DNA from: Thermoplasmata archaeon
GTDB lineage: Archaea > Thermoplasmatota > Thermoplasmata > Methanomassiliicoccales > Methanomethylophilaceae
Assembly: GCA_015063165.1 (NCBI GenBank)
Contig: SUSZ01000009.1
Location: 1-63,155, forward strand
Direction: 5' to 3'
Length of the DNA: 63,155 nucleotides
Numbering within the stretch: the stretch's first letter is position 1; each line of letters starts with the position of its first letter. The notes under the pieces were generated by a model, which saw nothing but the letters and a program-made list of their open reading frames with translations, was not told the origin of the DNA and did no database searches. Below are positions 17,653 to 40,400 of the stretch, one piece after another. The position numbers and the translations under genes were made by a program.

Positions 17653-18045
17653 ATGGCAGAAACTGCACAGAATCAGAAGAGCTTAGCAAACAACATCAAG
17701 TCCCAGTTCGGGCAGGCCGCCCAGGCCGGATCGGCCGTCCCCACGGACGGCACCACCAAGACCAACATCCTCGACTTCAGGGGAGGCCAGGTCTACATCG
17801 CCCTCAAGGCCGTGACCGCGGTCGACGAGGCCACCGGCCAGACCAGGGACCTCACGCCCCAGCTGCTCTGCATGTTCGGGGGCCACTACGTGGACCTCCC
17901 GATCAACGGCAGGTGGTGGAAGGAGTTCGCCGACTTCGCCACCAGGCTCGCGGACACCTTCGAGGGCGTCTCGCTGGAGAACATCAGGACGAACGGCGAC
18001 GCGGCCAACGCCAAGCGCCTCATGTCCAAGTTCAGGTCCGCATGA
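17653..18045 (+). CDS. hypothetical protein, first gene of accessory element
   Basis: 130 residues, soluble. The N-terminal 35 residues are rich in Gln, Ala and Ser and look disordered; the rest is a compact domain (NILDFRGGQVYIALKAV...). I recognise no family. It is coupled to the next gene by an ATGA overlap at 18042-18045. Confidence 0.65.
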   Translation: MAETAQNQKSLANNIKSQFGQAAQAGSAVPTDGTTKTNILDFRGGQVYIALKAVTAVDEATGQTRDLTPQLLCMFGGHYVDLPINGRWWKEFADFATRLADTFEGVSLENIRTNGDAANAKRLMSKFRSA

Positions 18046-18326
18046 CCGAGGACAGGGAGTACGCGATCGACAGGTGGTACTTCGCCGGCCACGCCGAGGC
18101 CCGCGTGTCACGCTGCAGGGCGAGCACGCTGGAGGAGGCTACGGCCAAGGCGGAGCGCCTCGTCTCGCTGCCCGGCACCACCAGGGTCAGGATCTCCAGG
18201 CGCGGCCCGCGCGGGAGGTTCTCGGCCGTGAGGGTCTGGGCGCTCCGACGCCATGCAGGGGGCCGCATCCCCATCCCTTCCCGCGGCCCCCGGCGGCGGG
18301 GAGGCCATCCCCTCCTCCCCGCCTGA
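18042..18326 (+). CDS. small basic hypothetical protein
   Basis: 94 residues, strongly arginine-rich toward the C-terminus (ISRRGPRGRFSAVRVWALRR). Residues 1-55 look ordered. Nucleic-acid binding is possible from the charge, not shown. Start ATG overlaps the preceding stop. Confidence 0.5.
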   Translation: MTEDREYAIDRWYFAGHAEARVSRCRASTLEEATAKAERLVSLPGTTRVRISRRGPRGRFSAVRVWALRRHAGGRIPIPSRGPRRRGGHPLLPA

Positions 18327-18380
18327 ACTTCCCCCGCCCGGAGGGAGCAATTCCGGGCTCTAACCGATCAGGTGAGATAA

Positions 18381-19553
18381 ATGGCTTCGAAAAACAGCTT
18401 AAAGGAACCGCAGAAGCTCACGCCCTCCGAGGTCACCCGCATGTTCAGCGGCATGACCCCCCTCCAGAGGACGAGATACTACAACAAGTGCATGACCAAC
18501 CCCAACACCCCACCCGCCAACGTGAGCCTGCTGATGCAGTACAGGGCGCAGAACGCCGACCTGTTCCTCACCGAGGAGCAGATGGCTGGATCCAGGAAGT
18601 CCAAGGGCTCCTGGGTCGCGGGGAAGGGGTTCTCCGGAGGATGGCGCGACGGGTCGAACGGCCGCGTCTACACGTCCTCCGGATACTCCTACGACAACAG
18701 CGGGAAGTACTACGACCCCTCCGGCAACGAGGCCGGCGGATGGCACGACGGGGGCCCCGACCCCGACGAGTACGGCTTCGTCTACGGCGACGACTTCATC
18801 AGGGGCAAGAGGTCAGCGCCCTTCCAGGGCGGCGGAAGGATCCGCCGCCAGCGCAAGCCCATCGACCAGCCCAGGTCCTCCCTGGAGCTCGTGGAGACCA
18901 TCAAGGCCTTCAACAGCCCCGTGAGGAGCAGGCGCTACCTCGACAGCATCGTCCAGAACGAGGGCTCGCACCCCGAGACCGTGGAGAACGCCAGGAAGCT
19001 CCTGGCCGGCAACAGCCCGCTCATCGCCAACGACGAGCAGATGGCCGCGTGGACCCCCAAGCCCCGCTCCGGTTCCGGCAGGGGAATCTTCTCCAGGAGG
19101 CCCGTCAACGAGGCCCGCTCCGCCGAGGACATCGCGGGGCTCATGGGCAGGCTCAGGAGCAACGTCGCGAGGACCAGGTACTACGACAAGGTCATAGGAA
19201 ACCCGGAGTCCAACGAGCAGACCGTCAGCAACCTCATGGCCTTCAGGAGCGCCAACCAGGGCATGTTCGCCTCCGACGAGGAGGCGCAGGCCGCTCCCCG
19301 CGGAACAGGCAGGAGGGCGTCCTTCTGGAAGTCCAAGGAGGAGTTCGACGGCATGTCCCCCAGGAAGAAGTACTTCTTCGTGGGGGCGGTCCACAGGAAC
19401 AGCCGCTCCAAGAACACCGCCTACGGGCTCCGCGTCATCACGGATCCCGACACGACCCCCGACGACAGGGAGGCCATGACCCAGGTGGTCAGGGAGAACC
19501 CCCTCCTGTTCTTCAGGAGGGCGAAGTCCGGAAAGGGCCAGAGAGGGCAGTGA
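18381..19553 (+). CDS. four-repeat hypothetical protein
   Basis: 390 residues with four diverged copies of a 45-50 residue helical module: starting near residue 20 (FSGMTPLQRTRYYNKCMTNP), 172 (TIKAFNSPVRSRRYLDSIVQ), 255 (MGRLRSNVARTRYYDKVIGN) and 316 (FDGMSPRKKYFFVGAVHRNS). Common elements are an R-x-RYY/RRY core, a D/N-P turn and a final NxxLF. A Gly/Tyr/Ser-rich linker separates copies 1 and 2. No signal or membrane segment. An internal structural or nucleic-acid-organising role is possible; function unknown. Confidence 0.65.
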   Translation: MASKNSLKEPQKLTPSEVTRMFSGMTPLQRTRYYNKCMTNPNTPPANVSLLMQYRAQNADLFLTEEQMAGSRKSKGSWVAGKGFSGGWRDGSNGRVYTSSGYSYDNSGKYYDPSGNEAGGWHDGGPDPDEYGFVYGDDFIRGKRSAPFQGGGRIRRQRKPIDQPRSSLELVETIKAFNSPVRSRRYLDSIVQNEGSHPETVENARKLLAGNSPLIANDEQMAAWTPKPRSGSGRGIFSRRPVNEARSAEDIAGLMGRLRSNVARTRYYDKVIGNPESNEQTVSNLMAFRSANQGMFASDEEAQAAPRGTGRRASFWKSKEEFDGMSPRKKYFFVGAVHRNSRSKNTAYGLRVITDPDTTPDDREAMTQVVRENPLLFFRRAKSGKGQRGQ

Positions 19554-19554: not shown

Positions 19555-21780
19555 ATGGCCCCCAGGACCCTTCTGGCCGGCCTGCTGGCCGCGTTCCTCC
19601 TGGTGCTCGTCCCCGCGCTGGCCGAGGGGTCCGAAGCGTACGCGAACACCTACGCCCTCGACTACGAGTGCGGCCAGGACGTCGACACCGACCTGACCTC
19701 GATCGTCGGCAGGCCGATCCTCTTCGTCTACTCGGGCGAGCTACCCTCCGGCCTGAGAATCGACATAGACTCGTCCTCGTCCGGATGGTTCGCCAGCCAC
19801 CGCTCGTTCCTCCGCGGCACCCTCACTGCGCCTGCCGGATCCTACACCTTCGTGCTGTCCGACGACACCCAGTTCTACGAGTTCACAGCCCTCGTCACGG
19901 CCGGGACCTGCACCGTCGCCTACGACGCCGGCATCGGCCTGGTCAAGGGCGAGAGGACCTGGTCCGAAACGATCTCCAAGGGGTCCTACGCGTCCCTCCC
20001 TTCCGCCACCCATTCATCGGGAGCGTACACGTTCCTCGGATGGGCCGAGAAGGCGGGCTCCCAGTACGCCCTGGACTCCTACGTGGCCGTCAAGGACTGC
20101 ACTCTGCACGCGGTGTGGAAGAGGAACTCCGTGTCCATCTCGGACTCCTCCGCCACCGTCACCAGCGGCCAGACAGCGACCCTGCCCATCAGCACCAATC
20201 CCAGGGACGCCTCCATCACCGTCGTCTCCCGCGGATCGCTCCCCGCCGGAGCGGTCTCCGTGGAAGGCCATGACCTCGTCCTGAACATGGCGAACGTCCA
20301 GCCCGGCACCTACTACATCACCCTCACGGCCGGTTCCACCGGGTACATCTCCGGCGAGTCCACGGTCACCGTGAGGGTCCCGATAACCATCGTGAAGCCC
20401 ATCGAGTACGTGCTGCACGAGGGCGACCCCTTCTCCTACACCCCCGTCACCAACCCCTCCAACGCCGACGTGACCATCGTAGAGGTCTCCAGGGACGGCA
20501 CCGTCCTCGGAGCCCACGGCGGCCTGTCGGTCGACGGGAGGACCATCACAGGGACCATGCAGGAGGATGGCACGTACTCCGTGACCTACACGGCTTCCCT
20601 GGAAGGATACGTCGAGGTCACCTCCAGCGTGCTGATCGAGGTGCTGGAGAGGGAGGAGGACCCCGCCGTGCAGCTGCCAGCCCCGGTCATGGGGAGCATC
20701 ACCATCTCCCCCAGGGCTGGGGAGCCCAGGGTCTTCGACCTCGTCCTCTCCGGGTACGGCAACGCCTCGAACATCGAGTGGCTCGTCGGCGGGAGGCTGA
20801 TCGCTTCCTCGTCCCCGACCGCCGTGTGCGAGCTCCCCGCCTCCGGAGTGCACACCGTCACCTGCAGGCTCACCGGCCTCGACGGCTCCGTCCTCACCGA
20901 GGATAAGGAGCTCGTGTGCAGGGACAACTACCACAGGGAGGCCGCATGGGCCGGCGTCGCCTACGGGTACGTCGCCACCGACGAGGTCCAAGTGGAGATA
21001 GAGGACGGGTCCCCGTTCACCGCGGCGCCTGCCAAGCTGGAGGGAAAGGGGTACGTCACGGTATCCGGGACCCCGTCGGAGTCCGACGTAGGCAGGACGT
21101 TCCATATAAGGGCTGGCCAGGACTCCTGGGCGGTCACCGTGTACAGTGCCGAGGCCTTCGCGCCCGTCGCCCTGTTCGACGCCGAGGTGCTTGATGACAA
21201 CAGGACCGTCAGGGTCTCCTTCACGGGGGACCATGCTTCCGCCTACTCCTTCGACTTCGACGGCGACGGCATACCCGAGCCCGGGAACGAGTTCGCCTAC
21301 CCCGACTCCGGAAGGCACGCCATCGTGTGCACAGCTTTCAACAACGTCTCCGAGACGTCGCATACGAGGATGGTCGAGCTGCCTTCGGAGAGGACGGAGG
21401 ATGTCCGCGTGATCTCCCTGACCGACTTCCGCATGGAGGCCGGCGAGAGGATGGACATACTCGTCTCCACGGACTCCGGCGACCGCCTCACTGTGTCTGG
21501 CACCGCGGCTAAATTCGTCAAGGTGGACGGCGGGTCCATCGAGGTGGAGCCCACCGAGAAGGGGGTCTTCGACCTCGTAGTCACCGTCTCCCACTCCGAC
21601 GGGTCGACCGAATCCAAGACGGTGAAGGTCACCGTCGAGGGGTCCGAGGTTGACGATTTGAAAGAGGACAGGCACGACCTGACCACGGTCCTGGCCGTGT
21701 TCTTCGTGATGGCCGTGATCGCAGTCGCATTGCTAGTGCTCGGCGACTCCGGCCGTTTGAAGAGGAGGGCCAGGAGATGA
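19555..21780 (+). CDS. membrane-anchored secreted protein, Ig/InlB-type (candidate spike)
   Basis: 741 residues. Signal peptide at 1-23, a divergent InlB-type segment near 125-190 (GAYTFLGWAEKAG...LHAVWKR), then Ig-like domains with putative-Ig features (ADVTIVEVSRDGT, VTVSGTPSESDVG), a PKD-like stretch (YSFDFDGDGIPE) and one C-terminal helix near 715-735 followed by KRRARR. It would project outside the cell with a short basic cytoplasmic tail. That topology is also that of spike proteins of pleomorphic archaeal viruses. Coupled by overlap to the next gene. Confidence 0.75.
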   Translation: MAPRTLLAGLLAAFLLVLVPALAEGSEAYANTYALDYECGQDVDTDLTSIVGRPILFVYSGELPSGLRIDIDSSSSGWFASHRSFLRGTLTAPAGSYTFVLSDDTQFYEFTALVTAGTCTVAYDAGIGLVKGERTWSETISKGSYASLPSATHSSGAYTFLGWAEKAGSQYALDSYVAVKDCTLHAVWKRNSVSISDSSATVTSGQTATLPISTNPRDASITVVSRGSLPAGAVSVEGHDLVLNMANVQPGTYYITLTAGSTGYISGESTVTVRVPITIVKPIEYVLHEGDPFSYTPVTNPSNADVTIVEVSRDGTVLGAHGGLSVDGRTITGTMQEDGTYSVTYTASLEGYVEVTSSVLIEVLEREEDPAVQLPAPVMGSITISPRAGEPRVFDLVLSGYGNASNIEWLVGGRLIASSSPTAVCELPASGVHTVTCRLTGLDGSVLTEDKELVCRDNYHREAAWAGVAYGYVATDEVQVEIEDGSPFTAAPAKLEGKGYVTVSGTPSESDVGRTFHIRAGQDSWAVTVYSAEAFAPVALFDAEVLDDNRTVRVSFTGDHASAYSFDFDGDGIPEPGNEFAYPDSGRHAIVCTAFNNVSETSHTRMVELPSERTEDVRVISLTDFRMEAGERMDILVSTDSGDRLTVSGTAAKFVKVDGGSIEVEPTEKGVFDLVVTVSHSDGSTESKTVKVTVEGSEVDDLKEDRHDLTTVLAVFFVMAVIAVALLVLGDSGRLKRRARR

Positions 21781-21998
21781 GCGAGGTAGTGGTCCCCGTG
21801 ACCACCTTCTGGGACATACTAGCCGCCACCCTGGACGACATATGGTTCTGGCTTCTCTCTGCCTCCACCATGGTCGCCATGGCGCTGTACATCCGCCTGA
21901 GGCTCCACGGGAGGCTGCTCCGATGGTCCCCGCGATCATCCCCGCGCTCGTGTCGATCCTCGGCTGGGTCGGCATCGACCTCGGCATCTCCTGGCTGA
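21777..21998 (+). CDS. small membrane protein
   Basis: 73 residues with one hydrophobic helix (WFWLLSASTMVAMALYI). The last 25 residues are Arg/Ser-rich and overlap the next gene, so they may have no selected function. ATGA overlap with the preceding stop. Confidence 0.5.
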   Translation: MSEVVVPVTTFWDILAATLDDIWFWLLSASTMVAMALYIRLRLHGRLLRWSPRSSPRSCRSSAGSASTSASPG

Positions 21999-22159
21999 CC
22001 AGGGAGCAGTCCGAGGCCGTCTATGTTATGGGCATGGGCCCCCAGGAGTTCCTGGACACCCACTGGCTCCCCTTGGTCCTATACCTTCTGATGGCCGCCT
22101 CTGCGGTCTCGCTGGCCCTGCCCAAGCGCAGGAAGAACGACGGGCGCGCGTCCCCGTGA
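21923..22159 (+). CDS. small membrane protein
   Basis: 78 residues from ATG 21923 (GGGAGG upstream). Two hydrophobic segments (IIPALVSILGWVGIDLGISWL and WLPLVLYLLMAASAVSLAL) and a basic tail PKRRKN. Unknown family. Confidence 0.6.
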   Translation: MVPAIIPALVSILGWVGIDLGISWLTREQSEAVYVMGMGPQEFLDTHWLPLVLYLLMAASAVSLALPKRRKNDGRASP

Positions 22160-22191
22160 AAGAAAGCCGCGCATCCAAACAGGTTGAGAAA

Positions 22192-23652
22192 ATGTTTTTC
22201 GCAAACAGAATCATGGCAGCCGCAGCGCTCGCCGTGGTCTTCATAATGGCCCTTTCCGCCGTCCCCGCATCGGACGCCATCGGCGAGGACCTCTCCGGGA
22301 CCTACGGGTCCCCCACGAACATCGACATAGCGCCCGGCTACCAATGGCGCTACACCGCCGAGTTCCCCAGCGACCTTACGGAGTACGTCACCGTGTCGCT
22401 GAAGGTCAACGACGGGAACATAGGCTCCGTGTCCGGCAAATCCGTGACCGTCACCATACCCAAGACCGCCACCGTCGGCACCGTCTACAACGTGGTCATC
22501 AAGGCTTCGATGACCCAGCCCGTCTCCCAGACCAGCTACCAGTACGTCACCTTCACCGTCGTCGCCGGCCTGAGCGTCTCCGGTACCATCAACGACATCA
22601 TCAAGGGATCCGCCATCAGCTTCACCCCCACCGGGACCTCCAGCATGGGCTCCGTCGTCTGGACCGTTACCAGCGGACATACGCTTCCCGTAGGCCTCAG
22701 TCTGAGCAACGGCAAGGTCACCGGGACCCCCACGAACCTCGGCCTCCAGACCGTGTACCTCACCGCGACGGCCAACGGCCAGTCCGCGACCCTCGAGGTC
22801 TCCTTCACCGTCTACAGCAAGATCGTAGGCGGATCCGCGCAGACCATCAGCTCCTATGGAACTGCTGTCTCTTCGGACGCCATAACCAACGGCTCCGACA
22901 TCAAGGTCACCTGGAAGGTGACGTCCGGGACCCTGCCCGCCGGCTTCACCCTCAACAAGGACACCGGGGTCGTCTCCGGATCCTCCACCGCCGTCAAGAG
23001 CACCACCGTGACCATCACCGGGACCGCCGGCGAGGGGCCCGCCCAGACCGCCACCAAGAAGATAACCATCAGGTCTGAGCCCGCCCTCACCCTCACCGCG
23101 TCCGCCAGCAAGATCCTCACCTACAAGGGCAACGCCGCCGAAAAGACCGTCACCATCGACACGCCCGGCACCTCGAACCTCACCTGGACCGTCACCTCCG
23201 TCGAGGGCGTCTCCATAGACGACGGGGTCCTCAAGGTCAAGAGCCCCACGAAGGCCGGCATGAGCCAGAGCCTGACCGTCACCTGCAAGTCGGCCTACGG
23301 CCAGACCAAGACCGTGAAGGTCACCCTCGCCGTCGAGGACACCCTGTCCGCCACCGGGGACTCGAGGCTCTCCGTCACCGCAGGGACCGAGGGCTCCACA
23401 TCGGCCTTCGACGTCTCCGGAGGGTCCGGGGTGACCTACAAGGCCTCCACAACGGCCAGCGGCCTCACCGTCAGGATGGCCGACGGCAAGCTCTACGCCA
23501 AGGGCACCGCGGCTGCCAAGGACCTTCCAGTCGTGGTCACCATATCCTCCGCCGCCGGCCAGACCGTCACGAAGGACGTCACCGTCGACGTCTACAGCAA
23601 GCTCGTCTTCACCTCCCTGCCCACCGGAGGGGCGATCATCTACGCGGTGTGA
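22192..23652 (+). CDS. secreted Ig-like repeat protein with GGAIIYAV C-terminus
   Basis: 486 residues from ATG 22192; a GTG at 22156, overlapping the previous stop, would add 12 residues. Signal peptide of about 28 residues ending SAVPASDA, then five or six Ig-like (putative-Ig) domains rich in Thr, Ser and Val. There is no C-terminal membrane helix. The last residues TSLPTGGAIIYAV match the end of the next protein, so the shared tail may be an assembly or sorting signal. Probable surface or virion protein. Confidence 0.75.
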   Translation: MFFANRIMAAAALAVVFIMALSAVPASDAIGEDLSGTYGSPTNIDIAPGYQWRYTAEFPSDLTEYVTVSLKVNDGNIGSVSGKSVTVTIPKTATVGTVYNVVIKASMTQPVSQTSYQYVTFTVVAGLSVSGTINDIIKGSAISFTPTGTSSMGSVVWTVTSGHTLPVGLSLSNGKVTGTPTNLGLQTVYLTATANGQSATLEVSFTVYSKIVGGSAQTISSYGTAVSSDAITNGSDIKVTWKVTSGTLPAGFTLNKDTGVVSGSSTAVKSTTVTITGTAGEGPAQTATKKITIRSEPALTLTASASKILTYKGNAAEKTVTIDTPGTSNLTWTVTSVEGVSIDDGVLKVKSPTKAGMSQSLTVTCKSAYGQTKTVKVTLAVEDTLSATGDSRLSVTAGTEGSTSAFDVSGGSGVTYKASTTASGLTVRMADGKLYAKGTAAAKDLPVVVTISSAAGQTVTKDVTVDVYSKLVFTSLPTGGAIIYAV

Positions 23653-23656
23653 TGCC

Positions 23657-25774
23657 ATGACCCCCAAGTCGTTCGCGCTCCTCGCGGCCGCCATCATGTG
23701 CGCCTGCGCCTGGTGCGCGTGCATCACCAACGAGTCGGAGGCGGCCGTCCAGCACGGCTCGTCCTCCTCCCCCCTCTGGTCCCTGAGCCTGTCGGCCTAC
23801 GACCTTCAGACGGACTCGAACAAGACGTATCACGTGTACGTCGGGGCGGCCGTCACGATCCTCTCCGAGGGCGACGAGGGAGGCAACGACGAGTTCGCCT
23901 ACAACGTGGACTCCGTCACCTCCGGGTACGGGCTGACCTACGACTCGTCCTACGGGGACTACGCCTACCGCGGCAAGGTCTCCGGGACCGTCTCCAAGGC
24001 GGGGACGATCCAGGTCGGGTACAGCGGCTACAACGGCCCCAGCTTCAGCGGCAGCGCCACCATCAAGGCCTACGCGGCCAGCTACGGGACCGCGTCCGCG
24101 CCCCTGTCCTCCCTGGACGTGGACGCCTACGACCTCCACTACCGCCCCGCCAAGGAGTACTACGTGTACGTGGGTTCCCCTGTCACCATTGTCTCCGTCG
24201 GGGACGAGGGAGGCTTCGGCGAGTTCGCCTACAACGTGGACTCCGTCACATCCGGCTACGGCCTCACGTACGACTCCAGCTACGGAGGCGAGGTCTACAG
24301 CGGGAAGGTGTCCGGGACGATCTCGAAGGCGGGGGATATCTCCGTCCGCATCAGCGGCTACAACGGCCCCTCGTTCTCCGAGACGGTCACCATCCACGCT
24401 ATCGCCAAGTCCACGGCCGTCACCGGGGTGACACTGGACAGGACCTCCGCCACCCTCGCGGTCGGGAGCACCCTGAAGCTCACGCCCACGGTCTCCCCCT
24501 CGGGTGCGTCGGACAAGACGGTCACCTGGAAGTCCAGCAACAAAAACGTCGCGACCGTCAGCTCCTCAGGGGTCGTCACAGCCAAGGCGGCGGGGACCAC
24601 GACGATCACCGTCACGACCAACGACGGCGGCAAGACGGCCACCTGCCAGGTCACCGTCACGTCTGCCTCCATCCCCGTAACCGGGATCACCCTGGACCAG
24701 TCCCAGATAAGCGTCAACGACGGCGGCAGCTACGCCTTCGTCGCCACGGTCTCCCCGTCCAACGCCACCAACAAGGCCGTGACCTGGAGCACCAGCGACT
24801 CCTCGATCGTGTCCATAACCACCGGCGGGGTCGCCAGAGGGGTCTCCCCCGGGACCGCCACGATCACCGCCACCACCTCCGACGGCGGCAAGACGGCCAC
24901 CTGCCAGGTGACAGTCCTCAGCCCGACCTACAAGGTCACCGTGAAGGTCGGGGCGTACGACTGCTTCAAGATGTACTCCCCGAGCTCGGCCTCCGGCACG
25001 TACTACCAGGACACCACATTCGACGTGTCCGCGGGCGAGAAGGTCGACGTCGACTGGATCAAGGACCCCGTCACGACCGAGTACCCCACGTACACCGTCA
25101 CGACCACCTACAAGAAGTGCGGCTCCGAGAAGGCCGATTCTACCGTCTGGAACGACGGCGGCTACCCCACCTCGAACTGCACCGTAACACCGGCCACGGC
25201 CACCCCAGCCGTGGAGTCCTCGACAACATCCTACAGGTTCACCCTGACCTACGACGGCAACGGCTCCACCTCGGGGACCGTGCCCTCGCAGCAGACGGCC
25301 ACCGACTCCTCGCAGACGCATTCGTTCACCCTGGCTTCCAAGGGGACGATGGCCAGGTCCGGCTACAAGTTCCTCGGCTGGTCAGAGACCAAGACCGCGA
25401 CCACCGCTAGCTACAAGGCCGGGGCCAGCTACAGCATGACGGCCGGCGAGAAGACGCTGTACGCCGTCTGGCAGAAGAACGCTCTAGTCGTCTCCGGGAC
25501 CCCCGAGCCCTACGGCGTCGTCGGCACAGCCTGGAGCTACAAGCCCACCGTCAACGTCACCTCGTACACCATGACGGTCTCCGGGGCCTCCTGGCTCGTG
25601 GCCAGCTCGGGCATGGTGTCGGGAACTCCCGACGCCCCCGGCGAGTACGACATAACCCTGACCTTCAAGAGGTCCGGGTACACCAGCGCCACCCAGTCGT
25701 TCAAGGTCACCGTCCTCTCGGCGCTGACCTTCGACTCCAACCCTAGAGGAGGAGCGATCATCTATGCAGTCTGA
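23657..25774 (+). CDS. secreted Ig2/InlB-domain protein with GGAIIYAV C-terminus
   Basis: 705 residues. Signal peptide to about residue 29. Two tandem about 100-residue repeats at 38-140 and 145-245, each containing VDSVTSGYGLTYDSSYG. Two bacterial Ig-like group 2 domains (SSNKNVATVSSSGVVTAKA..TTTITV) near 255-420, an InlB-type repeat near 525-600 (KFLGWSETKT..TLYAVW) and a last Ig-like domain ending SNPRGGAIIYAV. No membrane anchor. Its stop overlaps the next start. Confidence 0.75.
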   Translation: MTPKSFALLAAAIMCACAWCACITNESEAAVQHGSSSSPLWSLSLSAYDLQTDSNKTYHVYVGAAVTILSEGDEGGNDEFAYNVDSVTSGYGLTYDSSYGDYAYRGKVSGTVSKAGTIQVGYSGYNGPSFSGSATIKAYAASYGTASAPLSSLDVDAYDLHYRPAKEYYVYVGSPVTIVSVGDEGGFGEFAYNVDSVTSGYGLTYDSSYGGEVYSGKVSGTISKAGDISVRISGYNGPSFSETVTIHAIAKSTAVTGVTLDRTSATLAVGSTLKLTPTVSPSGASDKTVTWKSSNKNVATVSSSGVVTAKAAGTTTITVTTNDGGKTATCQVTVTSASIPVTGITLDQSQISVNDGGSYAFVATVSPSNATNKAVTWSTSDSSIVSITTGGVARGVSPGTATITATTSDGGKTATCQVTVLSPTYKVTVKVGAYDCFKMYSPSSASGTYYQDTTFDVSAGEKVDVDWIKDPVTTEYPTYTVTTTYKKCGSEKADSTVWNDGGYPTSNCTVTPATATPAVESSTTSYRFTLTYDGNGSTSGTVPSQQTATDSSQTHSFTLASKGTMARSGYKFLGWSETKTATTASYKAGASYSMTAGEKTLYAVWQKNALVVSGTPEPYGVVGTAWSYKPTVNVTSYTMTVSGASWLVASSGMVSGTPDAPGEYDITLTFKRSGYTSATQSFKVTVLSALTFDSNPRGGAIIYAV

Positions 25775-26930
25775 CAAGCTTTTCATGACATTGGCAGCGG
25801 CCGCGGCCATGATCGCGGCCTTCGCCCTGGTCTCGTCCGACGCGGACGCGCTCCAGGACTACACGAGGGACTACGGGGACTTCTACTCGTACACCCTCCA
25901 GTTCGTATTCGACGGCTCCGACGCCCAGTCCATCGAGTGGGACTTCGGGGACGGTACAGCGAAATCCACCGAGTGGAACCCCAGGCACGTCTACGCGGCC
26001 AAGGGGACCTACTACGTGACCCAGACCACACAGAACACCAACGGCGAGACCGTCGAGATATACAAGGTCAACGTCCTCGGCTTCCCCGTCGTCTCCTTCG
26101 AGAGCAACGGAGGTTCCTCCGTCCCCTCGATCGAGATGGACGCCTACTCCGTGCCCATATCCAGGCCCGCCGACCCCACCAAGGAGGGCTACACCTTCGC
26201 CGGATGGTTCCTCGACGAGGCCCTGGAGCAGGAGTTCGACTTCGGCTCCGAGGTCGTCAGGACCATGACCCTCTACGCCAAGTGGAATGTCGCCTCCCAG
26301 CCCTCCGATCCCGACCCTCCTACTCCGACAGTGGAGGAGTTCGAGGTCATGTTCGACTCCGACGGGGGCTCCTACGTCCAGACCCAGACCGTGAAGAAGG
26401 GCGCGAAGGTCGTCAGGCCCTCCGATCCCGCCAAGAACGGCTTCAGGTTCGACGGATGGTACAGGCAGGGCGCCCTCTACGACTTCTCCTCGCCCGTGTC
26501 CAGCGACATGACCCTCAGGGCGTCGTGGACGCAGAGCGAGCCCGGCTCCGCCTGGTGCATCGTCACCTTCGACGTGGACGGCGGCTCCGTCGCCGTCGTC
26601 CAGCAGAAGATGACCGCCGGGTCCCTCCTGGTCTTCCCCGCCTACGACGGCGTGAAGGAGGGCTTCGAGTTCTCCGGCTGGCTCTGCGGCGGATACACCT
26701 ACCAGCCCGGACAGTCCACGGCTATCGTCACCGACACCGTGGTCAAGGTCGTCTGGCAGGAGTCCGGCTCCGGCGACGGGGACGACGGGAAGGTCTCATT
26801 CTTCGAGGACCCCGTCGGATGGTTCAAGGGATTCGTCAAGGAGCCCTACGGCATAGCGATCCTGATCGCCCTGCTGATCCTGCTGCTCCTCCTGGCCTAC
26901 AGGGAGTACAGGAAGAGGAGGGGGTGCTGA
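25764..26930 (+). CDS. membrane-anchored PKD/InlB-repeat surface protein
   Basis: 388 residues. Signal peptide to about 28, a PKD domain (SIEWDFGDGTAKSTEWNPRH) near 50-95, three InlB B-repeats (e.g. GYTFAGWFLDEALEQEFDF) near 105-330 and a C-terminal helix (GIAILIALLILLLLLAYREY) with basic tail. Extracellular, anchored by its C-terminus; adhesion-like. Starts 11 bases inside the preceding gene. Confidence 0.75.
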   Translation: MQSDKLFMTLAAAAAMIAAFALVSSDADALQDYTRDYGDFYSYTLQFVFDGSDAQSIEWDFGDGTAKSTEWNPRHVYAAKGTYYVTQTTQNTNGETVEIYKVNVLGFPVVSFESNGGSSVPSIEMDAYSVPISRPADPTKEGYTFAGWFLDEALEQEFDFGSEVVRTMTLYAKWNVASQPSDPDPPTPTVEEFEVMFDSDGGSYVQTQTVKKGAKVVRPSDPAKNGFRFDGWYRQGALYDFSSPVSSDMTLRASWTQSEPGSAWCIVTFDVDGGSVAVVQQKMTAGSLLVFPAYDGVKEGFEFSGWLCGGYTYQPGQSTAIVTDTVVKVVWQESGSGDGDDGKVSFFEDPVGWFKGFVKEPYGIAILIALLILLLLLAYREYRKRRGC

Positions 26931-26932
26931 GA

Positions 26933-27424
26933 ATGCCCGGCTGGAGCGGCATAGCCAACGCCCTCCGCGGGCTCTTCCGCTCCGGAGGCTCCGCCGCCAC
27001 ATGGACCAAGACCTGGACGGCGAACGGCGTCAGGAACGTCCAGACGGTGACCACGGCCGCCGGCAGCGCCCTGGGCTCCGCCGGCACCACGGTCCTCACC
27101 TGGGGGAACGCGGCGAAGGTCGCCATCGTCGGCGCCTTCTCCTACCTGTTCCTCACAGGTGGGGCCTCCAACGTCGTGTCGCACGCGCTGGGGATCTCCC
27201 CCGAGGCCGCCCAGATCCTGATCATCTTCGGGTTCGTGGTCATCATGATACTGGCGACGCGCTACGTCGTCAACTGGATGGTCGCGAGGTACGGCCTCGA
27301 CAGGGAGAACCTCGACAAGCCGATCATCAGGCGCTTCGGGAACGTCTTCTGGGACGAGGACAGCGGGAAGTGGATCAGGAGGAGGAGCCGATGTACTGGG
27401 TACCTCTGCTGGCGGGCATACTGA
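26933..27424 (+). CDS. two-helix membrane protein
   Basis: 163 residues. Two hydrophobic segments near 63-85 and 100-118, with basic and acidic tails. It starts two bases after the previous stop and its last 11 codons overlap the next gene. Unknown family; the size and topology fit a small virion membrane protein or a channel-like component. Confidence 0.6.
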   Translation: MPGWSGIANALRGLFRSGGSAATWTKTWTANGVRNVQTVTTAAGSALGSAGTTVLTWGNAAKVAIVGAFSYLFLTGGASNVVSHALGISPEAAQILIIFGFVVIMILATRYVVNWMVARYGLDRENLDKPIIRRFGNVFWDEDSGKWIRRRSRCTGYLCWRAY

Positions 27425-27675
27425 ACGCTGCCTTCATCCTCGACCTGGTGTCGACCCTCACCACCGGCGAGTCCCTCGGGTCCCTCATCGGAGGGGCCTC
27501 GGGCAACTCCGTCGCCTCGGCGATTGTGAACGCCATACCCACGGACCCCCTGGTGTTCTGGACGGCCGCGGGCTTCATCCTGCTGTTCGTCTGCGCCATG
27601 GAGTGCCTGGTAATCTACGTAGCACTATATTCCGGAGCCGACAGGTGTAGCTGCGAGAGGGAGGCGATTCAATGA
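27391..27675 (+). CDS. two-helix membrane protein
   Basis: 94 residues from ATG 27391 with GGAGGAG just upstream. Hydrophobic segments at 3-20 and 58-80, cysteine-containing tail (DRCSCEREAIQ). Stop overlaps the next ATG. Confidence 0.6.
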   Translation: MYWVPLLAGILNAAFILDLVSTLTTGESLGSLIGGASGNSVASAIVNAIPTDPLVFWTAAGFILLFVCAMECLVIYVALYSGADRCSCEREAIQ

Positions 27676-27929
27676 ACGGAATACACCGCATTGTCCTAGG
27701 CCTCCTGCTCTTCGTGCTGGCCGCATGGATGTCGCCTTTCATGGCCGACGTCCTGGACGTGGATGACACTATAGTCTATCTGACGTTCGGTGGGACCCTC
27801 TCCTTCGTCGCAGGGATGCTGTTCTACTCGGGGGTGAGGACGTGGAACCGATCCCGATTAACCGCCGCATGGCCTCCGAGATCGCATCGCTCGGAGGAGG
27901 GCCAGACTACCAGGACGACGGAAAGGTAA
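27672..27929 (+). CDS. two-helix membrane protein
   Basis: 85 residues with hydrophobic segments at 6-24 and 34-52. The last 28 residues are Arg/Ser/Thr-rich and overlap the following gene, so the functional part probably ends near residue 57. Confidence 0.55.
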   Translation: MNGIHRIVLGLLLFVLAAWMSPFMADVLDVDDTIVYLTFGGTLSFVAGMLFYSGVRTWNRSRLTAAWPPRSHRSEEGQTTRTTER

Positions 27930-28072
27930 CACTATAGTTCGCCCTGGTTCCGATAGACATGGCCGTGGTCGACGACAAGGAAGCCGACGCATGGAAGGAC
28001 TACACAGAGGACTACATCGAGATCGACGGGGAGCGCTACGTCCCCGTCCTCCTCGGGGAGGCTTGCAGATGA
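27842..28072 (+). CDS. small acidic protein with in-frame UAG
   Basis: A 76-codon frame from GTG 27842 (GGGGTGAGG just upstream) to TGA 28070, interrupted by TAG at 27935-27937 (codon 32). It reads EPIPINRRMASEIASLGGGP before the UAG and FALVPIDMAVVDDKEADAWK after it. Its TGA forms a perfect ATGA overlap with the next gene, as elsewhere in this operon, which argues that ribosomes do pass the UAG. An internal ATG at 27959 could start a 37-residue protein instead, but it lacks a Shine-Dalgarno sequence. Confidence 0.5.
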
Positions 28073-28179
28073 GCGTCGCCGTCCCCATCCTGATGCTCCT
28101 CGTGGCCGTGTGGTTCTTCCGCAGGGCCTTCCTCAGGACCAAGGACAGGATGGACACGGAGGTGAAGGATGTCGTCTGA
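28069..28179 (+). CDS. 36-residue single-helix membrane protein
   Basis: MSVAVPILMLLVAVWFFRRA followed by a short charged tail. One membrane helix, basic on one side. ATGA overlap with the preceding frame, and its stop overlaps the next ATG (28169). Confidence 0.5.
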   Translation: MSVAVPILMLLVAVWFFRRAFLRTKDRMDTEVKDVV

Positions 28180-28929
28180 GAACGCCGGCCGCACCCCGGA
28201 CCCTCCCGAGATCGACGAGGAGGAGGAGCTCCAGCCCCTCCCGCAGGACTACTATTCCGACCCCGCCCCGCGCAGGAGCATATGGGAGACCATACGCAGA
28301 TGGCTGCTCCCCGCTTCTCTCTGCGTAACCGCCGTCTCGGTCAGCTGCCTAGCATTCGGCACCGACGCCGTGGTGGCGTTCCTGCAGGAGTGCTGGCCGG
28401 TGGCCCTCGCCCCCTTCGCCGGATGGCTCCTGGGGATCTGGGCGGCGAAGACCCTCTACGTCCCCACGGGAAGGATCGTCGCCACGATAGACCCGGAGAG
28501 CCACCTGTTCCGCGCGGTCTTCATCCCCGACGCGATGTTCAGGCTCTTCGAGCAATCCGGGAACAACGTCCTGTACCACACCCCCTCGGGGATGCCGGTG
28601 TACCTCGCCGAGGGCATCGACACCGAGAGGGGGACGATAGCGTACAGCTGGATCCACGAGCTCGGGGCGTTCGAGGTCATGACCAGGGAGGAGGCCTTCG
28701 TTAACTGGAGGCAGACCCTCGAGGAGGTCCTCAGGGAGAACCTGCAGCTCATGGACCACCCCCACGTCATCGGCCTCGGATTCGCCAGGAGATGCCTCAG
28801 GGACCAGCTCGACTCTATCGCGGAGGCCCTCGGCCTGACAGGGACCAACTTCTGGAGGGACAGGACCCCGGAATCTCCGGGCCTCTCAGACCCTCAAATG
28901 CCGCATTTCGAGGAGGATCCGCAGAATGA
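28169..28929 (+). CDS. membrane protein preceding the ATPase; stop missing or frameshifted
   Basis: About 253 residues: an acidic N-terminus, two hydrophobic segments near 48-68 and 72-92, then a soluble domain with VPTGRIVATIDPESHLFRAV and LGFARRCLRDQLDS. No family recognised. The frame has no stop near the ATPase start and stays open to 30013, but beyond 28930 the translation is a typical Arg/Gly/Pro/His shadow of the ATPase. In the -1 frame there is TGA at 28927, giving an ATGA overlap. One extra base in the CCCC run near 28863 would restore it. Indel or frameshift; the end given is that TGA. Confidence 0.55.
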
Positions 28930-29540
28930 GCAGGGCCGTCGAGTACGTCTCCGAGATGGAGCACGGCCTCGTCATAGCCGTGGGGTCCGGGAAGCAGGGC
29001 AAGTCCTGCTCCCTGCACTCGCTCATCGCAATGTGCTGGCCCGGGAGGCCGGTCTACATGCTGGACCCGATGGAGTACGACGTCTCCATGTTCCCCGGCT
29101 ACCGCCGGGTCGCGGAGGCGAAAGAGATCCCAGTAGGGGCCGTGGTCGTCATCGAGGACGTGAACCGCATCTTCCACTCCCGCGGCTCCTCCAAGAACAC
29201 CGACATCCAGGGGTGGCTGTCGATCATCTCCCACAGGAGCAACGTCGTGTGCCTCACGACGCAGAACATGGCCGACACAGACATCGCGTTCGTCCGCAGC
29301 CAGGACGTCGTGGTGATGAACAAGCGCATGCACGAGGAGGACCTGATGTTCGAGAGGCCGGAGTTCAAGGACTCCCAGGCGACGGCGAACTTCTGGATCG
29401 ACCGCGCCTGCGCCCTCCACCCGGGGACGGACCGCAGGGCCTGGTGCTTCTTCCCCAGGTTCCGCGAGTGCGTCTCCATACCGAAGGTCCCGTGGTGGTC
29501 CTACAGGAACAGCCACATGCTGAGGGACGTGGCGCTGTGA
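28926..29540 (+). CDS. FtsK/HerA-like P-loop ATPase (packaging-type)
   Basis: 204 residues. Walker A GSGKQGKS at 20-27, Walker B VVVIED at 73-78, then VVCLTTQN near 105-112 with the polar Gln after strand 4 expected of the FtsK-HerA superfamily. The small size resembles genome-packaging ATPases of archaeal and PRD1-like viruses (about 200 residues) and also Zot-like assembly ATPases of filamentous phages. In this operon it is the likely motor for DNA translocation or virion assembly. Overlaps the next start by GTGA. Confidence 0.7.
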   Translation: MSRAVEYVSEMEHGLVIAVGSGKQGKSCSLHSLIAMCWPGRPVYMLDPMEYDVSMFPGYRRVAEAKEIPVGAVVVIEDVNRIFHSRGSSKNTDIQGWLSIISHRSNVVCLTTQNMADTDIAFVRSQDVVVMNKRMHEEDLMFERPEFKDSQATANFWIDRACALHPGTDRRAWCFFPRFRECVSIPKVPWWSYRNSHMLRDVAL

Positions 29541-30013
29541 CCGTCCGCGTCGCGTCCGACTCCGAGACGGACAGGATCCTCTCGATGAGGGCCTCGTCCC
29601 TCATCCCCCTGCCGCCGGAGGTCTGCCTAGCCGACCCCGCGGAGTCCAGGGGCTACTTCCGCATGGCGGCCTTCTACGGCGCCTACGGCCTCGGGTCCCA
29701 CCCCGTGGTCGCATTGCTGAAAGACGAGCGCGTCGGCTCGATGATGGCCTCCGCGCTCTCCAGGGCGGACCACCTGGACCGCGTGTCGCACTACGGCGCA
29801 TGGCTGGGGAGGTCCACCGTCGTCATCGAGGACCTCGCTGGCCCGACCGTCGACGACCCGTCCCCTGCGGGAAGGGGCGCCGGTCCCGGCCGCCCGCAGG
29901 GCGGGGATCCGGAGGCGGAGGCGCAGCCGGAGCCGGGCCACGGACCGCCCTCCGGGGGCTGTCCTGACCGCGCGTCCGGCGAGAGCGCAGCGAGCGCCGG
30001 CCCTTCGCCCTGA
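29537..30013 (+). CDS. hypothetical protein with disordered Pro/Gly-rich tail
   Basis: 158 residues from GTG 29537, which overlaps the ATPase stop. Residues 1-105 look folded (RGYFRMAAFYGAYGLGSH). From about 106 on, the protein is Gly/Pro/Ala/Glu-rich and probably disordered, or extends into non-coding GC-rich DNA. Unknown function. Confidence 0.5.
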   Translation: MTVRVASDSETDRILSMRASSLIPLPPEVCLADPAESRGYFRMAAFYGAYGLGSHPVVALLKDERVGSMMASALSRADHLDRVSHYGAWLGRSTVVIEDLAGPTVDDPSPAGRGAGPGRPQGGDPEAEAQPEPGHGPPSGGCPDRASGESAASAGPSP

Positions 30014-30180
30014 GGCTCCGCCGAGGGGCGCGGGAGCCGCGGCGAAAACAGGCCGCGCGGCCGCCGAGAGGGCGCACGCCCCGGCGGACGCCGGCCGCCT
30101 TCCCAACGGCGACGCAGTCGCCGCTTCCAGCCCCTTCTTCGCAGGGGCGCATCACGATCATATCGGTCCAAGGGGCCCCG
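30014..30180. other. GC-rich non-coding block upstream of rep, candidate origin
   Basis: 167 bases without a convincing gene, immediately before the replication initiator. It is dense in CG inverted repeats, including the 12-bp palindrome GGCCGCGCGGCC at 30051-30062, preceded by an A-run (GCGAAAACA). Rolling-circle origins often lie beside their rep gene; the nick site cannot be identified by eye. Confidence 0.35.
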
Positions 30181-31719
30181 ATGAAAGGCCCCCATCGTAC
30201 AGACATGCAGCAGACCCTCGAGTACTACGACTCGCGCATGGAGCAGCAGAGGCTCCGCGCTCTGGAGAGGAAGTTCCAGCAGTTCGAGCGCCAGGGCATC
30301 GCCGAGCAGGCCGCCCTCGCCGAGCACCCCGTGGTGCGCTTCGTCAAGAGCCTCCCCGTGGAGGACCCCAGGTATCCTGCCATAGAGTACCTTAGACTTG
30401 CGCAGCAGGTCGGAAGGGACGTGTGGGAGGTCTTCAACGAGGTCCAGGAAGGGAGGAGGGAGTTCTCAGGAAGGGACGGCACTCAAATCCGTTTCGACCC
30501 CGTCCCCCACGAGTTCGTCACATGGTCCATGCCCGCCCACGACCTCCGCCGCCCCGAGGACAAGAAGTGCGGCTTCATCCGCTCCCCCTCCGGCTCCATC
30601 GTCTACACCATGTGCCCGGACCACCCGGAGCACTACCTCAAGGGCAAGAGGAGGCACTGCTGGTCCCTCCACTGCCCCAGCTGCATGAACGACACGGCTC
30701 TCAAGCACGGGGTAAAAATCGAGAGGCAGCTCCTCGTGTATCAGAAATTATGCGAGAAACAGGGAGTTGACGTCGGCCGCATAGGCCACTGGGTGATCTC
30801 CCCTCCCCAGGAATTAGCCAAGTGCATGATGCAGACCTACGAGGACTTCGACATCCTCCAGAGGTACGTCGACGACACGATCCTCGAGCTCGGAGGCAAG
30901 GCCGGCGTCACCGTGTTCCATCCCTGGCGCCAGAAGGAGGACTTCTGGGAGCTCTCGCCGCACTTCCACGTCCTCTGCTACGGCTTCCTGAGGACGAAGA
31001 GGTTCCTGAAGTAGAACCCGGGCTGGATCATTAAGAAGGTGCATCCCAGGGAGCGCATCAGGAGCATACGCCACACCGCCGCCTACCTGTCCACGCACAT
31101 GGGCCTCGGCCTCGTGGAGCAATCCTCCGAGGACGTCGACTGGGACCTCGACCTCCTGGACCACATGGTCCCCGGCATAAAGTCCCCTGGAGCCAAATTC
31201 TCAGAAAAGGACTACGAGGAGCTTTCAGAGGGGAAGGGCAGGATGTGCGGCGACCTATCCAGCATGGATTGGACCAGGTGGGCCGAGGACCGCCTGTACA
31301 GGGAGACCCGCATCCGCTACTGGGGAGGCGCCGCCCGCAACAGGATAAGGCTTGTGGGGATCCACCGCCAGTACAAGATCCGCGTCTGCCAGGAGTGCGG
31401 CGAGATGCTCCGCACGTACGAGGGCGCCGACGATTCCGTCGGCAATTACGTGAGGTACATCCAGGACAACCCGGTCCTCTCCTTCGCGGAGCACTTCGAG
31501 CAGGTGAAGACCGTCTACCTCAGGTTCAAGGACGACCTGAAAACCGAGGGCATGACCCTGTCGGACTTCTCGTCCCTCATACCTTTCGCGGTGTCTACGC
31601 TCGAGCTAGGTCTCTCCAGCGTATGCGACCTCGTGATGGACGGGCCCTTTCAGGAGCCGGACAGCTTCTTCCTGGAAAGACAGAAGGCCTCGTACCCGGG
31701 GCGGTCCATCGACCTATGA
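30181..31719 (+). CDS. HUH-type replication initiator (Rep) with in-frame UAG
   Basis: 512 residues with UAG read through at codon 278 (31012-31014). Zinc-binding region near 140-180 (CPDHPEHY...HCPSC). HUH motif SPHFHVLCYG with His261 and His263. After the UAG the sequence continues at once as NPGWIIKKVHPRERIRSIRH and HTAAYLSTHMGLG, where Tyr302 is the candidate catalytic tyrosine. A second Cys pair CQECG lies near 400. Stopping at UAG would give a 277-residue protein lacking the nicking tyrosine. No Shine-Dalgarno or start suits a separate downstream protein; GTG 31039 lacks one. Rep would nick the element's origin for rolling-circle replication. ATG 30205 is an alternative start. Confidence 0.8.
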
Positions 31720-31804
31720 AATTTCGATGCATCCGCCATCATAGCACCATTGTTGACAATCATAAAATAGCGGCAAGACGTTTGGCGTGCAGGGAGGAAT
31801 CGGA

Positions 31805-31978
31805 ATGGCGACCAAATCATTCTACGAGACCATGGTCATCGACACGCAGGAGGCCGGAGCGAATCTGGCCAGGGCCATAGAGGATTACGAGAAGTACGGG
31901 CCGTACGTCCCCGGGCCGGTCCAGGGCGTCACCGAGGATCCTGAGGACCTGGATAAATTCATGGGCGTGTCTCGTTGA
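31805..31978 (+). CDS. small MATKSF protein, antitoxin-like partner of GNAT (copy 1)
   Basis: 57 residues, acidic (MATKSFYETMVIDTQEAGAN). It shares the pattern MATxSF-x5-I-x-T-x-EA with proteins at 56198 and 59037, each followed directly by a GNAT-type gene. Here the TGA overlaps the TTG start of the acetyltransferase (TTGA). GGAGG (31795-31799) precedes the ATG. An antitoxin role is inferred from size, charge and pairing. Confidence 0.65.
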   Translation: MATKSFYETMVIDTQEAGANLARAIEDYEKYGPYVPGPVQGVTEDPEDLDKFMGVSR

Positions 31979-32505
31979 GCTACAAGATCGTCAGGCTGTC
32001 GTCCCTGCTGTCTTCCTACGGCGAAGACGAGGTCTTGGCGAGGCTGTCCTCCTTCGAGCCGGCCCGCGAGTCCTCCAATGATTCTTTCCTCACGGATAAC
32101 GCGATCCCGATGGAGAAGAGGAGCGAGTGCAGGACCTACATCGCCTACGACTCGGACACCCAGGCAATCATGGGCTTCTTCTCCATAGGGTTCAGATGCC
32201 TGGAGGTCCCCGACGTATGCGGCCTCTCCAAGACGATGCTCCGGAAGCTCAACAGATCTTATGAAGGCGTCGCTCAGGCGTACCTTCTCGGCCAGCTGTC
32301 GAGGGCCAAGGGGTTCAAGGGCTTCGGGAAGACGCTCATCGACGAGGCCATGTCGAGGATCAGGGCCGCCCAGGACATCGTCGGGTGCAGGGTCGTCCGC
32401 TTGGACTGCGCCGACGGCCTCGTCGGGTATTACGAGGAGTACGGGTTCCATTTCGTCAAGAAGAATGCCGACAAGGACCTGAACCAGATGGTCATGATCT
32501 TCTGA
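31975..32505 (+). CDS. GNAT-family acetyltransferase, toxin-like (copy 1)
   Basis: 176 residues from TTG 31975. GNAT features: GFFSIGF strand near 64, QLSRAKGFKGFGKTLIDEAM near 101-120 (acetyl-CoA loop region) and the C-terminal VVRLDCADGLVGYYEEYGF. Toxin-type GNATs acetylate aminoacyl-tRNA in bacteria; whether this one does is not shown. N-terminus SSLLSSYGEDEVLARLSSF is shared with the decayed copy at 59218. Confidence 0.75.
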   Translation: MSYKIVRLSSLLSSYGEDEVLARLSSFEPARESSNDSFLTDNAIPMEKRSECRTYIAYDSDTQAIMGFFSIGFRCLEVPDVCGLSKTMLRKLNRSYEGVAQAYLLGQLSRAKGFKGFGKTLIDEAMSRIRAAQDIVGCRVVRLDCADGLVGYYEEYGFHFVKKNADKDLNQMVMIF

Positions 32506-37378: not shown

Positions 37379-37404
37379 CTTCCGTTTCATTGGAGGACGA
37401 GACG

Positions 37405-40400
37405 TTGTTTAAAGGACTTCTTCCTGGAATCATCATGCTGCTGTCAGTGCTGGCTTTGTGCGTCGGAGCGTGCGGGCCGGGATGCGCAGGCGATTCGCCA
37501 GGGACCATCGTCACATCATGCGATCACGGGGCCATCGTCGACGCTGAGACGGGCAAAGAATACTACGGGGGCCCCTTCCAGGGCGGCCTCGTTCTGAGGT
37601 GCGTGCCGGATGCAGGGTTCGAGTTCGTCGGATGGTCCGTCGAGGGGACGGCCCAGATTACGCAGGACGGCGACACAATCGCAGTGTCGTCCGCGGAGGG
37701 GGCCGTCCGCATAACGGCGGAGTGCAGGAACTACTCCCCGTCTACGAGCCTCACCCCCGTCGTCGACGAGGACGACGTCCTGATGCCCGGGGAGGAGATG
37801 TTCATGAACTGGTCGTTCAAGAGCGCCGACCTCTATATGAGCGGCGGGACCTGGCTCGGCATGCCCAGCACGCCCCTCATCGTGGGCGACGTCGTCTACG
37901 TCCGCGCCGGGAGCTACCTCTATGCCCTGGACATCGACAGCGGGACCGTCCTCCACGCCGTCAAGTCCGAGGGCTTCGGCGTGGACTTCTACCACTACGT
38001 CAGCTACGGGAACGGGGTCATCTTCGACACCACCGGCTACAAGGCCTACGACCTCGAGCTGAACTACCTCTACGACATCCCCAAGAACCTCCGGTTCGTG
38101 ACCTATCACGACGGCTACTTCTACGGCTGCACCACTTCATCCGTACACAACAACGTCACCTACTACTCCATGTTCAAGACCTCCCTCGACGTCGACTCCG
38201 ACCTGGTCAACGGTGTCAAGACGAACCTCTTCGAGGGGAGGGACGAGTTCCCTCTCTTCTCCCAGTGGGGGCAGTACTCCGCGTTCATAATCAGGGACGG
38301 CTGGGCGTTCTTCCTGGAAGGAGACAGGGAAGCCAGGACCGTCGACGGATACAGGGGCATCACCGCCTTCAACATCGAGACCGAGGAGCATGTCACCCTC
38401 GACCTCACGCCGCTCATCGGCGGCATGTCCTGGGACGACGGCTGGCTCACCTACGACGACGGATACCTCTACCTCACAGCGTACATCGCCGGTCTGTTCA
38501 ACGGCGTCGGCCCGGGGTTCGAGAACAGGAACGACGCGGTCTGCTGGGTGAAGTTCGACTTCGAGAAGGGCTGCTTCGAGGCACCCCATTGCAAGGACAT
38601 AGAGTCCCCCTCACACGAGAAGTTCAAAGGTATAACCTCAGGATTCGTCGTCAAGGACGGCCACGGCTACATCAACGCCAGGGCCCTGGGGACGGAGACG
38701 CAGGACGGAGTCGACAACACCGGGACCCGCATGATATCCTTCGACATCGGCGAGGATGGGGAGCCCATCCCCGTGGACTCCGCCGCCAGCCTCATGAGCC
38801 ACGGCGGGATAGTCCTCAACACGGCCTTCGGCGACGTCAGGTACGTCTACCTCATCCCCTACAACGCCAAGGAGCAGGGCGTATACATATTCACGGACCG
38901 TCTGGCGGGCGGGAAGTGGACCCTCGACGAGGAGCCCTACCGCGCGATGAGCGACCCCGCCAGGCAGACGTTCTGCTCGCAGGGGGTCCGCATCGGCCCC
39001 GACGCGCAGTTCGTCTACTACGTGGACAGCGGCTACCTGGACTGCTACATCCCGGTCGACCGCTTCAGGCTGACCGCCATCATGGTGGAGGACGACAGCG
39101 CCACTGCCCAGGTCGGCTACGGAGGCAACGCGAAGAAGATCCTCTCCGAGATGTATCCGGGATCGTTCATTTCCGGGAACAGGATGATCATAGACGGAAA
39201 GACGTACACATTCCTGGGCCTGAACGAAGTGACCATGGTCTGGGAGAAGATAGCGGATATAGAGAAGAGCACCTACAGCGGAAAGACGCGCTCCACCAAG
39301 GCGATAACCGAGGCGTACTACCGCTACGTCATGCTGGTCGCCGACGGCTCCGAAGCCCACACCGACAACAGGTCCAACACGGGCGACATGGGCTGGTACG
39401 TCCTCTCAGGAGGGGAGTACCAGAAGCGCGCGGTGTACCTCTCTGAGACCTGGGACGAGGTCGTCGGGAAGGGCGCCGTGTACTCCACGACCAAGCCGTC
39501 CGCGCCCGCCGGCGTATTCACGATCTCCTTCGACTCCAGCGGCGGAAGCGCCGTTCCCAGCATCACCCAGGCCGCAGGCTCCCCCGTCAGCGTCCCCTCC
39601 CCTCCGACCAGGGAGGGGTACTCGTTCTCCGGATGGGATCCCTCCTTGCCGTCTTCCATGCCCGCCCAGGACATGACCATTGTCGCTAGATGGGCTGTCA
39701 ACAGCTACACCATAACGTTCGATCCGAACGGCGGAAACGCCGTCCCGAGCATCACCCAGGCCTACGGCACCGCCGTCAAGGCGCCTGCGGACCCCGTGAG
39801 GGAAGGCTACTTCTTCTCCGGCTGGAGCCCCGCGCTCCCGTCCGCGATGCCCGCCAAGGACCTCTCGGTCAGGGCGACGTGGACCAAGCTGGCCCCCCGC
39901 TTGTCAACGATCTCGTTCGACTCCAACGGCGGAAGCGCCGTTCCCAGCATCACGCAGGAGGCCGGCTCCCCGGTCAAAGCGCCCGCGGACCCAGTAAGGG
40001 AGGGCCATTCCTTCTCCGGATGGAGCCCCGCGCTCCCGGCGACCATGCCGGACCGCGACGTCACGGTCACGGCTGTGTGGACCGTAAACAGCTACACGAT
40101 CTCGTTCGACTCCAGCGGCGGCAGCGCCGTCCCGAGCATCACCCAGGCCTACGGCACCGCCGTCAGGGCCCCCTCCGACCCGATCAGGGAAGGGCATACG
40201 TTTGCGGGCTGGGAGCCTTCCCTCCCGGCGACGATGCTATCGCACGACATGACCCTGGTGGCCAGATGGTCCGTCAACATGTACACCATCACGTTCGACT
40301 CCGCAGGTGGCAGCCTGGTGCCGAGCATGAAACTGGACTACGGCTCGCCCGTTGCAGCCCCTTCCAGCCCGGTGAGGGAAGGGTACGCGTTCTCCGGCTG

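What the first reader, a model, noticed from the sequence alone, without database searches (positions are those of the whole stretch)
30181..31719. Replication initiator whose HUH motif and candidate catalytic tyrosine are separated by an in-frame UAG
The frame from 30181 runs to TAG at 31012 just after SPHFHVLCYG (HUH). It continues without a break as NPGWIIKKVHP and HTAAYLSTHMG to TGA at 31717. UAG as stop would give a Rep without its nicking tyrosine. If UAG is pyrrolysine, as in methylamine methyltransferases of Methanomassiliicoccales and Methanosarcina, replication of this element would depend on the host's pyrrolysine supply. That would be an unusual link between a mobile element and the genetic code. 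The element could only replicate in Pyl-decoding hosts.
Basis: partly seen in the sequence, partly recalled or inferred. Interest (0 to 1): 0.85.

Follow-up and report, generated by a model that had tools for sequence, protein, structure and literature searches.

The report
Plasmid-style Rep gene reading through UAG
A virus-like element in a rumen methanogen has a replication gene interrupted by a UAG codon, and the evidence says its host reads UAG as the rare amino acid pyrrolysine in all its genes, so the gene very probably works and is one more case of a known habit of these archaea rather than a special genetic lock.

Summary
The frame 30181-31719 is open except for one TAG at 31012-31014 (codon 278), which separates an invariant HUH motif (H261-F-H263) from Y302, the only invariant tyrosine in 22 homologues. 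No homologue ends at 278. The residue there is variable, and it is GAG (Glu) in the closest copies, so one base change made the TAG. The host has tRNA-Pyl(CUA), pylS, pylB, pylC, pylD and an mtmB with in-frame TAG. In 683 kb of the host genome, 9 of 12 TAGs that follow coding sequence are followed by more coding sequence, against 3 of 314 for TGA/TAA; TAG is about 1% of terminators. The part after the TAG has been under purifying selection. Three other full-length Reps carry TAG at other positions (137, 215, 348), one of them in a complete genome. So UAG here is most likely read as pyrrolysine, giving a full-length Rep. The residue looks neutral, not functional. UAG-containing mobile-element genes are already published for Methanosarcina and Methanomassiliicoccales, so the 'unusual link' is the ordinary consequence of the host's code. 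The less described part is the element: a conserved block of surface proteins, Zot-like ATPase and HUH Rep, absent from the viral and family collections searched.

The parts
30181..31719 (+). rep: 512-residue HUH-type replication initiator if UAG is read as sense; 277 residues if it stops
   Evidence: translation, 22-member alignment A1, homologue search
31012..31014 (+). in-frame TAG, codon 278; GAG (Glu) in the closest copies
30961..30969 (+). HUH motif H261-F262-H263, invariant
31084..31086 (+). Tyr302, the only tyrosine invariant in all 22 homologues; candidate nicking residue, downstream of the TAG
29537..30013 (+). conserved gene N directly upstream of rep, function unknown
   Evidence: syntenic in L069-L073, L075, L077, L078, L088, L118
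28926..29540 (+). P-loop ATPase with GSGK(Q/T)xKS, weakly Zot-like
   Evidence: Pfam Zot E = 0.009, below cut-off; syntenic next to rep
28169..28960 (+). conserved gene L with membrane segment (end approximate; no stop of its own before 30013)
27869..28072 (+). extra small ORF J with a second in-frame TAG at 27935-27937; no homologue in sister elements
26933..27929 (+). three small membrane proteins (G, H, I), conserved order
19555..26930 (+). four surface proteins with PKD, Ig-like and Flg_new repeats (C-F), conserved order
17653..19553 (+). genes A and B, left end of the conserved block
   Evidence: A and B also at the far end of the element in L118

Best explanation
The gene is the rolling-circle-type (HUH) replication initiator of an integrated virus- or plasmid-like element of about 14 kb (genes A to rep, about 17.6-31.7 kb) in a rumen-type Methanomethylophilaceae archaeon. 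A GAG codon in a variable loop between the HUH motif and the catalytic helix mutated to TAG. The host charges tRNA-Pyl(CUA) with pyrrolysine and reads UAG as sense throughout its genes, so the change behaves as Glu278 to Pyl and full-length Rep is made. Shown here: the frame, the homology on both sides, the variable site, the complete pyl cassette, and the genome-wide sense use of TAG. Inferred: that pyrrolysine is inserted at this codon, that the protein nicks DNA through Tyr302, and that this copy is still active.
For: All homologues run through position 278, with Glu, Gln, Asp, Leu, Ala or another sense residue there. tRNA-Pyl(CUA), pylS over cut-off, pylB, pylC, pylD and mtmB with TAG are in the same genome. 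Strict census: TAG followed by coding 9/12, TGA 3/298, TAA 0/16, Fisher p = 5e-13; same pattern in a complete relative (TAG 3/3, TGA+TAA 3/185). dN/dS downstream of the TAG 0.17 and 0.12; on the window branch 8 synonymous to 7 non-synonymous changes downstream, p = 0.009. Four of 23 full-length Reps carry an internal TAG, each at a different position, none an internal TGA or TAA. The element's gene order is kept in at least ten loci.
Against: No expression, proteomic or read data. Purifying selection on the branch includes time before the TAG arose. Taken alone, the all-TAG pattern in Reps is weak: 57% of one-step stop mutations in these genes would give TAG, so 4 of 4 has p = 0.10. No RNA structure after the UAG stands out (z = 0.17), though mtmB shows none either. 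The genome is in 67 contigs and a base error at this codon cannot be excluded. Gene L lacks its own stop in this copy. The structure models are of low confidence (pLDDT 38 and 58).
Confidence: 0.78

Rival explanations
1. The TAG is a recent inactivating nonsense mutation in a dying element copy; Rep is truncated and non-functional.
For: The genome holds several decayed rep copies with frameshifts, truncations and stops; this copy's gene L has lost its stop.
Against: The host reads TAG through elsewhere; the rest of rep and the A-to-N gene block are open; three other full-length Reps carry only TAG and never TGA or TAA internally; purifying selection on both sides.
Confidence: 0.13
2. UAG acts as a partial stop that makes two products, a 277-residue HUH domain and full-length Rep, to tune replication.
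For: A suppressor tRNA competes with release, so some truncated product is plausible (inference); the break lies between two functional motifs.
Against: The TAG sits at different positions in different copies and is absent from most, so its position is not conserved; for mtmB in Methanosarcina little termination product is seen (PMC2933860).
Confidence: 0.06
3. Sequencing or assembly error at one base.
For: Fragmented genome; no reads available.
Against: Independent TAG-containing Reps exist in other genomes, including a complete one, and TAG read-through is genome-wide.
Confidence: 0.03

Closest known systems
Transposases with in-frame amber codons in Methanosarcina acetivorans and M. mazei (PMC2933860)
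   Same: mobile-element enzyme gene with in-frame UAG in a Pyl-decoding archaeon; close relatives elsewhere lack the UAG
   Different: transposases with a conserved UAG position; here a HUH Rep and the position is not conserved
46 amber-containing genes of ISO4-H5, including 10 insertion sequences (PMC5011839), and the predicted Pyl proteins of Ca. M. alvus, including a prophage-like helicase (PMC4153887)
   Same: same order of archaea, same genome-wide tolerance of in-frame TAG, mobile genes included
   Different: no HUH Rep was named among them in the text read here
Pyrrolysine in Thg1 of M. acetivorans (described in PMC2933860)
   Same: sense codon replaced by UAG in one lineage, pyrrolysine not essential for activity
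   Different: cellular tRNA enzyme, incorporation shown by experiment
HUH endonucleases of rolling-circle replicons and alphapleolipoviruses
   Same: HUH motif, downstream invariant tyrosine, strand-helix order, neighbouring ATPase and surface proteins
   Different: no detectable sequence match to any Pfam or PHROG model; Rep-Arvir of betapleolipoviruses (PMC13107129) is described as distinct from the HUH superfamily

Membership tests
Pyrrolysine-containing protein | in-frame UAG with homology continuing on both sides | tested here: met
Pyrrolysine-containing protein | host has pylT(CUA), pylS, pylB, pylC, pylD | tested here: met
   (pylB, pylC, pylD assigned by reading the translations next to pylS)
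Pyrrolysine-containing protein | UAG not used as a general terminator by the host | tested here: met
   TAG about 1% of terminators at the strict setting, up to 5% at the loosest
Pyrrolysine-containing protein | pyrrolysine found at the residue by mass spectrometry | not testable with these tools
   no proteomic data
HUH endonuclease | H-hydrophobe-H motif | tested here: met
   H261-F-H263 invariant in 22 sequences
HUH endonuclease | conserved catalytic tyrosine in a following helix | tested here: met
   Y302 invariant, in a predicted helix in both models
HUH endonuclease | HUH fold | tested here: inconclusive
   model pLDDT 58; best PDB match is the HUH transposase of ISHp608, E = 7e-3; viral Rep proteins among weak matches
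HUH endonuclease | match to a known Rep family model | tested here: not met
   no Pfam or PHROG match for any of the 22 members that indicates a Rep
Inovirus- or pleolipovirus-like provirus | conserved block of rep, morphogenesis-type ATPase, small membrane proteins and surface proteins | tested here: met
   the Zot match is below cut-off
Inovirus- or pleolipovirus-like provirus | sequence relatives among known viruses | tested here: not met
   none in IMG/VR, phage or plasmid collections

The most novel reading that the evidence does not exclude
An undescribed family of HUH-Rep, Zot-like-ATPase archaeal viruses or plasmids is drifting into UAG dependence in its essential replication gene, so that individual lineages become locked into Pyl-decoding hosts and their replication follows the host's pyrrolysine supply.
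Probability: 0.25. Interest if true: 0.65.

Novelty: new member of a known kind. Interest (0 to 1): 0.4.

Why it matters
It shows that reading UAG as sense reaches into the replication gene of a mobile element, which matters for annotation: standard gene callers would split this Rep and call it broken. It also gives a testable case of an element whose key enzyme can be made only in hosts with the expanded code, and it points to an apparently undescribed element family that recurs in Methanomethylophilaceae, several of them rumen genomes.

Tried and rejected
A downstream RNA structure at the UAG (z = 0.17; mtmB z = 0.63): nothing distinctive. Rfam in 26-34 kb: no match. Flanking direct repeats or att sites for the element: only 11-13 base chance matches, so the ends are set by synteny alone. 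Relatives in IMG/VR, phage and plasmid collections: none. Whole-protein structure model: pLDDT 38, not used beyond its secondary structure. Bias of internal stops towards TAG as a test on its own: rejected as weak, p = 0.10. A first search with a wrong Rfam accession says nothing about tRNA-Pyl; ARAGORN settled it. A paper describing an archaeal code with all TAG as pyrrolysine is known to me from memory but was not found in the library, so it is not used as evidence.

Full report
Observation. The frame from ATG 30181 to TGA 31717-31719 has one internal stop, TAG at 31012-31014, codon 278.

Homologues. Twenty-five of 60 related genomes hold a match; most of the full-length ones have no internal stop. 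With position 278 masked, all alignments that reach it run through; the residue is Glu in the closest copies (codon GAG) and Gln, Asp, Ala, Leu, Asn or others elsewhere. None of the homologues ends there; all full-length ones end at TGA or TAA. In a 22-member alignment H261, F262, H263 and Y302 are invariant, and Y302 is the only invariant tyrosine. A product ending at 277 would keep the HUH and lose that tyrosine. The site itself is variable, so nothing suggests a functional role for pyrrolysine there.

Host code. The window is contig C12 of a 2.28 Mb, 67-contig genome; the named records closest to the Rep are Methanomethylophilaceae and related genomes, several from rumen. On contig C34 ARAGORN finds tRNA-Pyl with anticodon CUA; PylS scores over its cut-off; reading the neighbouring frames gives PylB, PylC, PylD and an MtmB with in-frame TAG (these names are from my reading of the translations). 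With a codon-usage score trained on the genome itself, 683 kb were surveyed for stops preceded by 60 coding codons. At the strict setting the next 30 codons are open and coding after 9 of 12 TAG, 3 of 298 TGA and 0 of 16 TAA. Looser settings add TAGs that look like antisense shadows of genes and lower the share to 12 of 33, still far above TGA and TAA (10 of 394). Non-followers at the strict threshold include the TAG of mtmB itself and two with more than 600 open codons behind them. A complete relative, G131, gives TAG 3 of 3 and TGA plus TAA 3 of 185. Published figures agree: 1.6% TAG among stops in Ca. M. alvus with 16 further predicted Pyl proteins (PMC4153887), and 46 amber-containing genes in ISO4-H5 including 10 insertion sequences (PMC5011839). 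G131 has 1,937,883 bases, ISO4-H5 1,937,882; they may be the same genome, but G131 is unnamed.

Selection. Against the two closest copies dN/dS downstream of the TAG is 0.17 and 0.12, upstream 0.10 and 0.13. With the 80% relative as outgroup, the window branch has 8 synonymous and 7 non-synonymous changes downstream, more synonymous than the neutral expectation, p = 0.009 (the script stopped with an error after printing this). This includes time before the TAG.

Other TAG copies. Full-length Reps with one internal TAG: window 278, G025 348 (L034), G028 215 (L019/L079), G131 137 (L115/L118); a truncated copy has one at 408. No full-length copy in this set has an internal TGA or TAA. Scattered positions in variable places are what neutral entry of a sense codon predicts.

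The element. Genes upstream of rep keep the same order in about ten loci: surface proteins, three small membrane proteins, gene L, a P-loop ATPase, gene N, rep, and in G131 with A and B at the far end. The ATPase matches Pfam Zot weakly, below cut-off. No relatives of rep were found in IMG/VR, phage or plasmid records and no family model recognises it. A domain model of modest confidence has the strand-helix order of HUH enzymes and its best PDB match is an HUH transposase, E = 7e-3. Element ends were not found. PylS is present in nearly all hosts, so host range says nothing about dependence.

Verdict. UAG is most likely read as pyrrolysine and Rep is made whole. This follows from the host's general use of UAG and adds an HUH Rep to a known list of amber-containing mobile-element genes (PMC2933860, PMC5011839). 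Dependence of this copy on a Pyl-decoding host follows if the copy is active, which is not shown.

Noticed in passing
window 17653-31719; L069-L078, L118: A conserved element of about 14 kb (A, B, surface proteins, small membrane proteins, Zot-like ATPase, N, HUH Rep) recurs in Methanomethylophilaceae and has no match in the viral collections searched. A 15,055-bp prophage reported in strain LGM-DZ1 (PMC10804542) is of similar size; not compared.
   Followed up: partly
window 28169-30013: Gene L has no stop of its own in this copy: its frame stays open through the overlapping ATPase gene into gene N, giving a 614-codon frame.
   Followed up: partly
window 27869-28072: A small orphan ORF with its own in-frame TAG (27935) lies between genes I and K, where sister elements have no room for it.
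   Followed up: partly
G000:C42 (L030/L085), C37, C39, C54: The genome holds several truncated, decayed or diverged rep copies besides the window copy, two of them side by side on C42.
   Followed up: partly
L059:3580, L063:8810, L067:7490, L098:7722, L102:7231, L107:7138 and 15870: Further TAGs inside well-scoring coding frames of the same genome; candidate pyrrolysine proteins, not identified.
   Followed up: no
window 31787-32505: Directly downstream of rep, a 63-residue ORF followed by a GNAT-type acetyltransferase, a layout seen in toxin-antitoxin pairs.
   Followed up: no
window 37390-45351: A 2653-residue protein with about 23 Flg_new repeats, next to a periplasmic-binding/FecCD/ABC transporter set (45355-50637) and large leucine-rich-repeat proteins.
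   Followed up: no
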